Shown piece by piece: positions 4,845 to 9,915 of a stretch of 55,772 bases of DNA. The DNA lies in contig CAMTOO010000004.1 of assembly GCA_947074185.1 (NCBI GenBank), positions 1 to 55,772 of the forward strand, written 5' to 3'. Each line of letters starts with the position of its first letter. Position 1 is the first letter of the stretch. The stretch comes from an uncultured Negativicutes bacterium. Lineage in GTDB: Bacteria > Bacillota > Negativicutes > Acidaminococcales > Acidaminococcaceae. The notes beneath the pieces were generated by a model, which saw nothing but the letters and a program-made list of their open reading frames with translations, was not told the DNA's origin and made no database searches. A program made the translations under genes and the position numbers.

Positions 4845-5567
4845 TTAATAGAATATTCCGCCTAGACCCCAACCGCCTCTGCGCCAGCCGCCGCGACCAA
4901 TGCCTACTCCTATGCCAATTGGAACGCTACTGCTTCCTCTTCTAACATAATCTGCTGGTTTGATATCTAATCTAAAATTACCTTCTTTAGTAGCATTACC
5001 AACTGTTACCATTACGCGTACGTTTGTTTTTCCTTCAATCCTCGGAACAATAATATTATCCCCTTCAATGTTTACTACTGCTGTATCTGCAGGGACTAAC
5101 ATTAATTCGTAAGGAAGGCCTGCTGGTACTGACACAGAAACTCTAGCTTTAACTCCAAGTGGAATTTTTGTGCTTGGTATGGAAACTTTTACTCTTGAAG
5201 CTAACATTGATTCTGAACTACCATCTATAACTTCTGTTCTATTTTCGTCAAAGCGTCTCCAAACTGCGCTATAATCTTTAGCTACTAGAAAATCTGTAAT
5301 TAGTGTATGATCTGCATTGTTAATAGCATTTACATGGTAAAAATAATTACCTAAGAGATCATCATAGAGTCTAAAATGGTACTCCATATTTTCGTCTAAA
5401 CCAGATTTTTCTGGCGCTATTTTCGTGATGTGCGCTGTAACTTCGTCATATTTTTTCCCTTCAGTTACAAAGCCATCTCCACCGAAAAAACCTGTTCCTG
5501 CAAAAGCTGTACTTACTGACAAAAGAGTCATAATTATAACCACAAGCATTGTTTTTATAAACTTCAT
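4845..5567 (-). CDS. Exported protein, unknown, with Gly/Arg-rich tail
   Basis: The 240-residue product has a clean signal peptide (cleavage after AFA, residue 23). The body is rich in beta-type residues and includes a stretch resembling a bacterial Ig-like fold (about 150-210). The last 25 residues are rich in Gly, Arg and Trp (RGGWRRGGWG) and end in Phe-Tyr. I do not recognise a family. The start has a strong GAGGTGAGG site. It lies 26 bases downstream of the AIDA-repeat gene on the same strand, so the two are probably co-transcribed and both act at the cell envelope. Confidence 0.75.
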   Translation of the reverse strand: MKFIKTMLVVIIMTLLSVSTAFAGTGFFGGDGFVTEGKKYDEVTAHITKIAPEKSGLDENMEYHFRLYDDLLGNYFYHVNAINNADHTLITDFLVAKDYSAVWRRFDENRTEVIDGSSESMLASRVKVSIPSTKIPLGVKARVSVSVPAGLPYELMLVPADTAVVNIEGDNIIVPRIEGKTNVRVMVTVGNATKEGNFRLDIKPADYVRRGSSSVPIGIGVGIGRGGWRRGGWGLGGIFY

Positions 5568-5593: not shown

Positions 5594-6526
5594 CTAATTT
5601 CTTCTATGAACAATACCACTACCACCAGCCAGAACAATTTGAGTTCCGCCTCGAGCTAACTCATTAATAATACCTGTTCCGCCACTGCTAACTATTTGTG
5701 TTCCACCATAGTTTAAAGCGGTTATAACACCAATACCACCGCCACTTACGACTTGTGTTCCCCCAGCATTAAGGGCTTTGACATTTCCAACTCCGCCACT
5801 TATATATTGGGTGCCACCTGTCATATTAGAAACAATACCTGTGCCACCACTATTTATATGTTGAAGGCTGCCAGATAAAACAGCAATAGTTCCTGTGCCA
5901 CCACTATTTACTCGTTGGAATCCTCCATTTAGTGAAGATACTGCGCCTTTAGCGCCAGTATTTACAAATTGTGTTCCTCTATTAATAGAGCTTACGTAAC
6001 CTGAGCCACCACTACTTATAACTTGAGTTCCAGCTATTAAGCTTGAAGCATGGCCTGTGCCACCACGATCAATGAATTGTGTTGCGTTGCTTATATTAGA
6101 TGCAATGCCTACAGCTCCGCTGTAAATAAATTGCACCCCACTATTCAAAGCTGATACTACACCGCTGCCACCACTAACTATTTGTGTGCCACCACTCAAA
6201 TACTGAACAATTCCTGTACCACTCATAATATTCATAGTATCGCCAAGTGGTAAAACAGATACAACTGAGGAAACACCAGGAACGTTTATGATACGTCCTG
6301 CTTCTGCTGTTTTAAACACTAATTTTTCTACATAGCCTGCAATTTCATTTAAAGATTCGTATTTAACGGCTTGAGTTGTTTCTAGAGTTTTTATTTCTTG
6401 TTTTGCTTCGAATTCCTGTAAGGAAACCATACTTTGCCCCATCGGCAAAAACACATTAACTGCATTGATTCCCATAACTAGTGAGACTAATATTTTTTTA
6501 CTGATTTCTTGTTGTAAAGTTTTCAT
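5594..6526 (-). CDS. AIDA-repeat passenger-only protein (autotransporter paralogue without barrel)
   Basis: The 310-residue protein shares its N-terminus (KKILVSLVMGINAVNVF) with the full autotransporter encoded just upstream on the same strand. From about residue 95 it consists of roughly twelve 18-19-residue repeats of the type GGTQIVSSGGTGIV, which in AIDA-family passengers fold into a beta-helix. It stops inside the last repeat (GGSGIVHRRN), with no barrel or anchor. The ribosome site AAGGAGGAAAACC and a nearby -10 are intact, so it may be expressed. It may be a secreted repeat protein, a gene that has lost its 3' end, or a donor for recombination with the larger gene. Confidence 0.8.
   Translation of the reverse strand: MKTLQQEISKKILVSLVMGINAVNVFLPMGQSMVSLQEFEAKQEIKTLETTQAVKYESLNEIAGYVEKLVFKTAEAGRIINVPGVSSVVSVLPLGDTMNIMSGTGIVQYLSGGTQIVSGGSGVVSALNSGVQFIYSGAVGIASNISNATQFIDRGGTGHASSLIAGTQVISSGGSGYVSSINRGTQFVNTGAKGAVSSLNGGFQRVNSGGTGTIAVLSGSLQHINSGGTGIVSNMTGGTQYISGGVGNVKALNAGGTQVVSGGGIGVITALNYGGTQIVSSGGTGIINELARGGTQIVLAGGSGIVHRRN
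5597..6241 (-). repeat. Tandem 54-57-bp coding repeats (AIDA type)
   Basis: About twelve degenerate copies encode the unit [N/S]SGGTGxVxxLxxGTQ[I/V][I/V]. The copies differ at most third positions, so they are old and not a fresh expansion. Confidence 0.8.
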
Positions 6527-6636: not shown

Positions 6637-9600
6637 CTATTTATTTGTATATTCAAAAATGTTTACACGACGATTATTTGCACGTCCTTCAGCTGTTGAA
6701 TCTGTATCAGCTGGTTCTGCTTTACCTTGGTATGTTTCTTCCATTTGTGCCGCTGGAACACCTTCGTTTCTAGCAATGTTTTTTACATTTTCTACTCTGC
6801 GTTTGGAAAGTTCCATATTATATTCTTCTGTCCCAATAGCATCTGTATGTCCTACTAAGGCATAAGTTCTATTTGGATTTTCCTTAGCTACTTTTACAAA
6901 GTTATCGATTTTTACTTGTTCCCCAGCTTTTGGAGTATCAACATCAAAATCAAAATAAATTGTATCTAAGAATTCTTCATGCTTAGGTGCTACTATTGGA
7001 GTCATTGGAGGTATTGCAGGCAATGGTGTTGCTGGTTTTGGTCCACCAAATGCAAATCTTATGCCTGCATTTACTTGCCATTTCTTTTTGATATCTCCGC
7101 CGAAGCTCTTAACCACATCTCCATACACATAAGTTTGTTTCGAAAGAGTATGTGTTCCGCCTATGCCAAGTTCGAACCAATTTCCTTTGTTCTCTCTTAC
7201 ATAGTTCATTCTTTCACCATTTGTTGCCAATAAATCCATTGTGTCTTTACCTAAGAATTCACGATAGAAGTTTGCTTTCAAGTAGTAATCACTTGATTCG
7301 TTGATTCTTCTACCAAGGTTAAACCCAACGCGACCTAATAAACTATTTATTGCTGAACGGTCTACATCAACACCACGTTCAGTTTCATAGTTTCCGCCAC
7401 CTAAATGTCCATAAGCGAGTTGAATTTGAGGTTCTATAAACCAGCCATTTGTATGTTCAATTGTTTTTCCGAATTCGTAACTAATGCTATAGCCATTAGT
7501 ATCGAAATTGAAACTATCTGGAACATTGCCATAGCTGTTCATATTGCTTCTTAAACGGCCATAACGAAGTACTAAGTCGCTATAGCTACCGTTATCTTTA
7601 TAAGTAGTCATGTATAGGCTTAGTCCTGTCATTGAACCTTCACCATCGCCTTCCACATAACTTCCAGAAGTATTACTATGATCTATTGCAAAACCATATG
7701 TGTTATTGCCTACAGTTTTATCTATACCTACTTGGAACATTTGACGATTAGAATCGTAGCCTTGACCTTCAAGATTTCCAGCTTTTACTCTCGCCCATAC
7801 GCCATTTGCTTCCTTATCTAAACGCAAGTCGCCAAGACGGTTACGAAGAGTATCATCTGTCATAATATTACGCCACAAGCCATAACTTGACTCAATATTT
7901 CCGATAAGGGTTTCTGTAGATGGATTTGGTTCTTTAACTATATTAGTAAGATACCAATTGTTTGGATCTAACTGCAATACATTTGGAGTTATTTCCCAAA
8001 GTCCGCCATTGTCTAATGCAAGTCCCTGAAATGTTACATTATCTGATGCATCTGTTGCAAACAATAATGTTTTTATTCCTGTTACCATGTCGCCAGTAAA
8101 TAAGCTTTCGTCTACTACTTGCACATATTGTGTAGTTCCAGGATCACTTACTGTAATGATAATCTTATCACTATTCGCCTCACTTGCAAGATCGGTATTA
8201 ATTTTAAAGATAGTACCACTACCAGTTAGACGATCAACGGTTATAGTTTCAAATGTACGTGTTACACCAGTACCGTGTTTTTCTGTCATATCTATAATAC
8301 CGTCATTACCCTTAAGAGTTCCTGTGAACTTATACGTATCTGAATCGGCATTTAATAATACACGTCCGCCATTCATTTCTAGATCTTTAATTTCACCAGA
8401 TGCAGTATGATACAAAATCAATCCGTCATTCATAACCGTTTCCGCAGCTGTACCACCTGAAATATGCACTTCGCCGCCATTCATATCTTCAACAGTTCCT
8501 GTGCCAAAAGTTGAAATATGCTGTGTTCCTGCTAACAATGAACTTATTGCACCAGTCCCAAACATAACACTTTGTTCGCCACCACTCATGTATTCTACAA
8601 CAACATCGTTTAGTCCTAACTGCGTACCATTAGTCATATTTATAATTGTTCCTACGTGAGAAACAATTTGTATACCATCTACCATCGATGATATTACACC
8701 CATCCCTGAGACCCAAACCTCTTGCGTACCACTATACATAACATCTATACTACCTGTTCCATACATAAGTTGATTACCATCATTCATGGTATGAATCTGA
8801 CCAGTAGCATTGAAATCTATGTATTGATCACCATTATTGTGCACAGTAACATAACCTGTACCACCAAAATTAACAAGTTGTTCACCCTCATACATTGTAC
8901 CAACATGCCCTGTACCATTTTGAGATACATGCTGAGTTGATTCCCAAATTCCGCCAGAGACTGTACCAATACTTCCTAAAGCATATGCCTGAATAATTTG
9001 TTCGCCACCATTTGCTATTACTGCTGATGCAACACCACCAGAATAGACTACTTGGTAACCATCATTTAAATTTTTTATATAACCTTTACCACCAGAAACT
9101 ACTTGCAGTCCATAATTAATCGTATCAAGATGACCTACAGCTCCCTCGTAAACATATTGTGTACCTTTCCCAATTATCTCGCCAACACTTCCTGTACCGC
9201 CAGAATAAATATTTTGCGTTCCCATGATAGCAGTTGCATTACCATAAATTTCATCAACATCTGCTACACCGTAAACATTTTGAACTGCACCTGAGAAAGC
9301 TCCCCCAGATGCGTATGCACCAGCTTCAATAGTTTGGTAAGCGCTAGTTGTTTCTTGAAAAAACAAAGTTCCTCCAGAAGAAACTGTTTGAGAGCCAGAA
9401 GCAACTTTTACAACTGTAACAACTGCATTATTATGAATAATTTGCGTTCCACCGTATATCTCTTCGACTTGCGCGAACCCATTTTCATGTACTTCTTGAA
9501 GTCCACCAGACATGATATATACATCAGCAAAACCAGCAGATGAAATATATTGAGTTCCACCTAAAAGATATTGCACGCTTCCTGTTCCATTAGTGATATT

Positions 9601-9915
9601 CATTGTATCGCCTGCAACCATGGAGTAAAATGCAGTAGACCCTCCATTAATATTGCTAGTCCATGCCTGTGCTTTATTGAACACTAAATCATCTACATAT
9701 TCTACTATGTTAGATAATGTAGTATAACCTGCTTTTTCATCGCTTACCGCTTTGTCCAAAGCAATTTCTTTTTCAGGCTTAATATCAATATTTCCTTCAA
9801 ACTTATTTAGCTGATTTACAGCTTGTGTCATTGGCGCAAATACATTGACTGCATTAATCCCCATAACCAAAGAGGCCAATATTTTCTTTGATTTTTCCCT
9901 AGTGGAGTCGTTCAT
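6637..9915 (-). CDS. Autotransporter with AIDA-repeat passenger, beta-barrel and C-terminal OmpA domain
   Basis: This 1092-residue protein has four parts. Residues 1-75 hold a conserved export leader (KKILASLVMGINAVNVF). About 85-505 are AIDA-type repeats (GGTQxVxxGGTGxV), followed by a beta-rich stalk to about 690. About 690-957 form an autotransporter beta-domain that begins NGVWARVKAG and ends in the aromatic pattern RFAFGG. A Pro-rich linker (PATPLPAIPP) leads to an OmpA domain (about 984-1092) with the peptidoglycan-binding signature VGHTDAIGTEEYNMELSKRR, retaining the Asp and Arg that contact diaminopimelate. Autotransporters normally end at the last barrel strand, so the added OmpA domain should lie in the periplasm and tie the barrel to the cell wall. 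The function of the passenger (adhesion is usual) is inferred. Confidence 0.92.
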   Translation of the reverse strand: MNDSTREKSKKILASLVMGINAVNVFAPMTQAVNQLNKFEGNIDIKPEKEIALDKAVSDEKAGYTTLSNIVEYVDDLVFNKAQAWTSNINGGSTAFYSMVAGDTMNITNGTGSVQYLLGGTQYISSAGFADVYIMSGGLQEVHENGFAQVEEIYGGTQIIHNNAVVTVVKVASGSQTVSSGGTLFFQETTSAYQTIEAGAYASGGAFSGAVQNVYGVADVDEIYGNATAIMGTQNIYSGGTGSVGEIIGKGTQYVYEGAVGHLDTINYGLQVVSGGKGYIKNLNDGYQVVYSGGVASAVIANGGEQIIQAYALGSIGTVSGGIWESTQHVSQNGTGHVGTMYEGEQLVNFGGTGYVTVHNNGDQYIDFNATGQIHTMNDGNQLMYGTGSIDVMYSGTQEVWVSGMGVISSMVDGIQIVSHVGTIINMTNGTQLGLNDVVVEYMSGGEQSVMFGTGAISSLLAGTQHISTFGTGTVEDMNGGEVHISGGTAAETVMNDGLILYHTASGEIKDLEMNGGRVLLNADSDTYKFTGTLKGNDGIIDMTEKHGTGVTRTFETITVDRLTGSGTIFKINTDLASEANSDKIIITVSDPGTTQYVQVVDESLFTGDMVTGIKTLLFATDASDNVTFQGLALDNGGLWEITPNVLQLDPNNWYLTNIVKEPNPSTETLIGNIESSYGLWRNIMTDDTLRNRLGDLRLDKEANGVWARVKAGNLEGQGYDSNRQMFQVGIDKTVGNNTYGFAIDHSNTSGSYVEGDGEGSMTGLSLYMTTYKDNGSYSDLVLRYGRLRSNMNSYGNVPDSFNFDTNGYSISYEFGKTIEHTNGWFIEPQIQLAYGHLGGGNYETERGVDVDRSAINSLLGRVGFNLGRRINESSDYYLKANFYREFLGKDTMDLLATNGERMNYVRENKGNWFELGIGGTHTLSKQTYVYGDVVKSFGGDIKKKWQVNAGIRFAFGGPKPATPLPAIPPMTPIVAPKHEEFLDTIYFDFDVDTPKAGEQVKIDNFVKVAKENPNRTYALVGHTDAIGTEEYNMELSKRRVENVKNIARNEGVPAAQMEETYQGKAEPADTDSTAEGRANNRRVNIFEYTNK
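8400..9660 (-). repeat. Tandem AIDA-type coding repeats in the large passenger
   Basis: About twenty degenerate units of 18-20 residues with the core GTQ.[V/I]..GG.G.[V/I] repeat through the passenger. They are more diverged from each other than those of the short paralogue. Confidence 0.75.

What the first reader, a model, noticed from the sequence alone, without database searches (positions are those of the whole stretch)
6637..9915. Autotransporter whose beta-barrel is followed by an OmpA peptidoglycan-binding domain
Residues about 85-690 form an AIDA-type passenger, 690-957 a full barrel ending RFAFGG, then a Pro-rich linker and an OmpA domain with GHTDAIG and LSKRR intact. In classical autotransporters the barrel's last strand must be C-terminal for BAM recognition. 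Here the barrel signal is internal, and the protein would tie a surface fibre, the outer membrane and the wall together. Negativicutes usually tether their outer membrane through SLH-domain OmpM proteins, so this could be a second, surface-displayed tether.
Basis: partly seen in the sequence, partly recalled or inferred. Interest (0 to 1): 0.65.

Follow-up and report, generated by a model that had tools for sequence, protein, structure and literature searches.

The report
Surface adhesin with cell-wall anchor domain
This bacterium makes a whole set of surface adhesins whose membrane-spanning end carries an extra wall-gripping domain, a swappable tail that has been attached to, and lost from, several different adhesins and is shared with a distant relative, Megasphaera.

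Summary
The 1092-aa ORF at 6637-9915(-) has an AIDA-like passenger, a complete 12-strand autotransporter barrel (predicted model matches EspP at Z 28.6, down to EspP's last residues), an internal beta-signal GIRFAF (951-956), a Pro-rich linker and an intact OmpA peptidoglycan-binding domain with both DAP-contact residues (D1025, R1040). It is not a one-off. The genome holds 21 barrel matches and 9 OmpA domains: six are complete fusions and three are cut by contig ends. The OmpA tail sits on at least three divergent barrel types. Near-identical barrels in the same genome lack it, and three genes keep decayed tail remnants after a stop. The same architecture was found in two Megasphaera genomes and in no other of 380 Negativicutes genomes. 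Fused tails form one clade (99/99), apart from native OmpA. The genome lacks native OmpA but has two OmpM-type SLH proteins. Most likely mechanism: a type Va adhesin held to the wall from the periplasm. The stated BAM rule is too strict, because OmpA itself has an internal beta-signal. Trimeric autotransporters with C-terminal SLH or OmpA domains are published, so this is a new variant of a known kind. Wall binding is inferred, not shown.

The parts
6637..9915 (-). CDS, 1092 aa, type Va autotransporter with C-terminal OmpA domain
7957..9663 (-). passenger, residues about 85-653, AIDA-like strand-loop-strand region
   Evidence: sequence; TIGR01414 match begins at residue 554; neighbouring paralog matches TIGR04415/AIDA-I
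7855..7923 (-). pore-spanning helix, residues 665-687
   Evidence: AF2 model helix 12-34, aligned with the EspP pre-cleavage structure
7048..7803 (-). 12-strand beta-barrel, residues 705-956
   Evidence: PF03797, PDB profile match, AF2 model and VIA-align Z 28.6 to EspP
7048..7065 (-). internal beta-signal GIRFAF, residues 951-956, fits GXX-aromatic-X-aromatic
   Evidence: consensus from PMC13067283
6967..7047 (-). Pro-rich linker, residues 957-983
   Evidence: sequence; alignment of six paralogs
6640..6966 (-). OmpA-like peptidoglycan-binding domain, residues 984-1092
   Evidence: PF00691; fold match to OmpA/Pal domains including 3TD5 with bound peptide, Z 15-16
6841..6843 (-). D1025, equivalent of DAP-contact D271 of A. 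baumannii OmpA
   Evidence: PMC6572160
6796..6798 (-). R1040, equivalent of DAP-contact R286
   Evidence: PMC6572160
6580..6617 (-). terminator-like hairpin just after the gene
   Evidence: consensus scan only
5594..6526 (-). paralogous passenger-only ORF, same N-terminal signal region, no barrel

Best explanation
The protein is a type Va autotransporter adhesin with a built-in wall anchor. It is exported through Sec, and BAM inserts the 12-strand barrel using the internal beta-signal GIRFAF. The passenger crosses to the surface and, in this genome, may be O-glycosylated by an Aah/TibC-type heptosyltransferase. The linker and OmpA domain stay in the periplasm, where D1025 and R1040 clamp the diaminopimelate of peptidoglycan. 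The wall then carries the pulling load on the adhesin and the barrel adds one more outer-membrane tether beside OmpM. The OmpA tail came from a native-type OmpA, including its linker and probably part of its last strand, joined after the barrel's last strand. It now behaves as a swappable 3' module gained and lost by recombination between paralogs. Shown: architecture, barrel fold match, conserved ligand residues, modular distribution, purifying selection. Inferred: topology, peptidoglycan binding, mechanical role, recombination route.
For: Full-length barrel match to EspP/Hbp/BrkA. OmpA fold and DAP residues in all fused copies. Six complete fusions plus three contig-cut OmpA tails in the genome. 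Same architecture in two Megasphaera genomes. Fused tails one clade 99/99 while barrels bearing them are scattered, 8 changes. Two G342 tails 96% identical in DNA on barrels 62% identical. Nearly identical barrels with and without tail, own C13 genes. Tail remnants after the barrel or linker stop in two own genes and one Megasphaera gene. dN/dS about 0.1-0.25. Analogue: TpgA reinforces AtaA against extraction in simulations (PMC13082670).
Against: No experiment on expression, location or wall binding. The genome has 82 contigs and three tails cut by contig ends, so copy number is uncertain. The loss of the tail in several paralogs shows it is dispensable for those genes. Narrow distribution (three genomes) argues against a general tethering role.
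Confidence: 0.77

Rival explanations
1. The OmpA domain is a passive or decaying appendage, left by chance recombination with an ompA gene, with no wall-anchoring role.
For: Several paralogs lost it by deletion and kept an intact barrel; only three of 380 genomes have it.
Against: dN/dS roughly 0.1-0.25 among this genome's tails, both DAP-binding residues kept in every fused copy, kept in two families.
Confidence: 0.12
2. The fusion is an assembly artefact: a repeated OmpA domain was joined to unrelated barrel genes.
For: Three contigs end inside the OmpA tail, as collapsed repeats do.
Against: Six complete junctions whose tails differ by 10-20% in DNA, a conserved linker, in-frame joining each time, and independent Megasphaera assemblies with the same join.
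Confidence: 0.03
3. The OmpA domain acts mainly in assembly or stability (holding the barrel or timing BAM release) and not as a load-bearing anchor.
For: EspP release from BAM involves its C-terminal residue (PMC13067283), so an internal last strand may release differently; TpgA-like partners stabilise barrels.
Against: Barrels without the tail coexist and look intact; DAP residues conserved.
Confidence: 0.08

Closest known systems
Trimeric autotransporters with C-terminal SLH domain (Veillonella, PMC7549365, PMC5491611)
   Same: Surface adhesin whose barrel is followed by a putative wall-binding domain; same bacterial class
   Different: Trimeric type Vc YadA anchor and SLH domain; here a monomeric type Va barrel and an OmpA domain
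Trimeric autotransporters with C-terminal OmpA domain (Streptobacillus moniliformis, reported in PMC7549365)
   Same: OmpA PF00691 at the extreme C-terminus of an autotransporter, several copies in one genome
   Different: Type Vc trimer in a fusobacterium; here type Va, Negativicutes, tail shuffled among barrels
AtaA-TpgA (Acinetobacter, PMC13082670)
   Same: Adhesin anchor reinforced from the periplasm by a partner classed as peptidoglycan-associated
   Different: Two separate proteins; trimeric barrel
Inverse autotransporters with LysM such as YeeJ (PMC5595812)
   Same: Autotransporter that itself binds peptidoglycan
   Different: Type Ve, N-terminal LysM, reversed topology
OmpA (8-strand barrel plus OmpA domain), native copies in relatives
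   Same: Internal beta-signal, Pro-rich linker, same periplasmic domain; likely donor of the tail
   Different: Small barrel without a passenger; not found in this genome
OmpM (SLH plus barrel, PMC10628300)
   Same: Class-typical outer-membrane tether, coexists here
   Different: SLH domain is N-terminal and barrel is a porin

Membership tests
Type Va (classical) autotransporter | 12-strand barrel of PF03797 with pore helix | tested here: met
Type Va (classical) autotransporter | N-terminal passenger in the same chain | tested here: met
Type Va (classical) autotransporter | barrel is the C-terminal end of the protein (textbook form) | tested here: not met
   136 residues follow F956; hence filed as a variant
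Type Va (classical) autotransporter | passenger secreted to the surface | not testable with these tools
   needs protease accessibility or microscopy
OmpA-domain peptidoglycan binder | PF00691 fold | tested here: met
OmpA-domain peptidoglycan binder | DAP-contact Asp and Arg, 15 residues apart | tested here: met
   D1025, R1040; PMC6572160
OmpA-domain peptidoglycan binder | binds peptidoglycan in vitro | not testable with these tools
   no assay
Trimeric autotransporter (type Vc) | YadA anchor barrel | tested here: not met
   Pfam scan gives PF03797 only for the barrel
OmpM | SLH domain followed by porin barrel | tested here: not met
   no SLH hit in the protein; separate SLH proteins in the genome

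The most novel reading that the evidence does not exclude
The OmpA tail is a dedicated swappable 3' anchor cassette. Recombination at the conserved last strand and linker adds it to, or deletes it from, many adhesin genes, so that a lineage changes which adhesins are fastened to the wall and which are held by the membrane alone. The cassette-bearing set has also passed between families of Negativicutes.
Probability: 0.3. Interest if true: 0.66.

Novelty: new variant of a known kind. Interest (0 to 1): 0.5.

Why it matters
It extends wall-anchored autotransporters from the trimeric type to the classical monomeric type, and gives natural pairs of nearly identical barrels with and without the anchor (own C13 pair; G343 C67/C55). 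That makes two questions directly testable: whether BAM and passenger export tolerate a large periplasmic domain after a type Va barrel, and whether wall anchoring increases the force an adhesin can bear.

Tried and rejected
First AF2 job (residues 600-1092, 4 sequences) had pLDDT 45; its fold matches are used only as support. Viral contigs held no relative. Paper searches for a classical autotransporter fused to OmpA found none in the held library; the library is open access only, so this is no proof of absence. 'Fusion replaces native OmpA' was considered and not adopted: native OmpA was not found in this genome, but one Megasphaera genome has both and native OmpA is patchy in the family. 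One apparent extra fusion in the barrel tree (L046) turned out to be a barrel running into a TonB-dependent receptor and was removed. An independent origin of the fused tail in each family was rejected by the tree. Assembly artefact considered and rejected (see rivals). One search was a needless lookup.

Full report
Observation. The ORF at 6637-9915(-) is 1092 aa with no internal stop. Pfam finds the autotransporter barrel at 706-934 over the whole profile and OmpA at 988-1082 over the whole profile; NCBIfam TIGR01414 runs from 554 to 956. A profile from eleven barrels of this genome aligns over its whole length with the solved barrels of Hbp, EspP and BrkA and ends at their terminal Phe. An AF2 model of residues 654-962 (pLDDT 68, pTM 0.71, only four aligned sequences, and three of the five models were poor) has a helix at 665-687 and twelve long strands. 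VIA-align gives Z 28.6, rmsd 2.6, 289 residues against EspP, and the model's F956 falls on EspP's last residues. So the barrel is complete and 136 residues follow it. The first, longer model was weak (pLDDT 45) but its C-terminal part matched OmpA and Pal domains at Z 15-16.

The beta-signal GIRFAF fits the consensus GXX-aromatic-X-aromatic. D1025 and R1040 stand 15 residues apart, as D271 and R286 of A. baumannii OmpA, which contact diaminopimelate (PMC6572160). All twelve fused or contig-cut tails and all 28 native or other OmpA domains collected keep both.

A family, not a single gene. The host genome (1.57 Mb, 82 contigs) has 21 barrel matches and nine OmpA domains: six complete barrel-OmpA fusions and three OmpA ends cut by contig edges. 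The six tails are invariant over most of the OmpA domain and show dN/dS of roughly 0.1-0.25. Most other barrels in the genome stop at the normal terminal aromatic residue.

A swappable tail. The tail is attached to at least three divergent barrel types. In contig C13, two tandem genes have nearly identical barrels, one with the tail and one without. In one Megasphaera genome (G342) two tails are 96% identical in DNA on barrels that are 62% identical, with downstream DNA also unrelated. On the barrel tree the label 'fused' needs 8 changes, whereas the fused tails form one clade with 99/99 support, apart from native OmpA. Three genes without a working tail keep its decayed end after the barrel or linker stop: C23 5851-8679 and C23 444-2822 in this genome and C55 in Megasphaera G343. 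The C23 444-2822 remnant plus downstream DNA aligns with the 3' end of the neighbouring fused gene at score 106 against at most 42 in 300 shuffles. Hence losses by internal deletion are well supported; gain by recombination is inferred from the mismatch of the two trees.

Distribution. Among 59 genomes of the same family only this one has the fusion. Among 380 genomes of the class (102 genera) only this one and G342 and G343 have it. G343 corresponds to the Megasphaera sp. MAG UW_MP_MEG3_1; G342 is of the same genus code. The list is cut at weaker scores, so divergent fusions could have been missed. The tool places Megasphaera in another family and not in the window's order; I infer, without a direct test, that the window's family is near Acidaminococcaceae. 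One Megasphaera fused barrel groups (99) with a tail-remnant barrel of this genome, which fits a fused ancestor shared by descent or transfer.

Origin. Relatives encode a native OmpA of about 370 aa whose last strand, linker and domain align with the tail from about residue 938 onward. A native OmpA barrel was not found in the host even at E up to 10. It has two SLH proteins of about 400-420 aa of OmpM type. One Megasphaera genome keeps native OmpA beside fusions, so simple replacement is not supported.

Mechanism. The best account is a monomeric adhesin anchored to the wall from the periplasm. Shown here: architecture, fold match, conserved ligand residues, selection, modular spread. Inferred: topology, binding, mechanical function. 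Support by analogy: TpgA roughly doubles the simulated force needed to extract AtaA (PMC13082670); YeeJ binds peptidoglycan (PMC5595812, title and abstract). Glycosylation of the passenger is suggested by a strong Aah/TibC heptosyltransferase match in the genome (542.6 bits) and by strand-loop-strand repeats in the neighbouring paralog.

Comparison with the known. Trimeric autotransporters with C-terminal SLH (Negativicutes) or OmpA (Streptobacillus) domains are published. I found no paper in the held library on a classical type Va barrel followed by OmpA. I therefore rate it a new variant of a known kind; the swappable tail is the most interesting part.

Noticed in passing
window 5594-6526 (-): Passenger-only 310-aa paralog with the same signal region and strand-loop-strand repeats (AIDA-I-like) but no barrel; a truncated gene or a silent donor of passenger sequence.
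   Followed up: partly
G000:C17:21320-22420 (-), L150: Aah/TibC autotransporter heptosyltransferase (TIGR04414, 542.6 bits) near an orphan 81-aa barrel fragment; passengers are probably glycosylated.
   Followed up: partly
L046 (G014:C9): Autotransporter barrel followed in frame, without a stop, by a TonB-dependent receptor plug and barrel (Pfam PF03797, PF07715, PF00593; 2895-aa frame).
   Followed up: partly
G000 whole genome: 21 autotransporter barrel matches in only 1.57 Mb, a rich set.
   Followed up: no
L115 / G343:C55: Megasphaera autotransporter with a stop inside the linker and a decayed OmpA end downstream.
   Followed up: yes
window 4845-5567 (-): Exported 240-aa protein with a Gly/Arg-rich C-terminus and no Pfam family above cut-off.
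   Followed up: no
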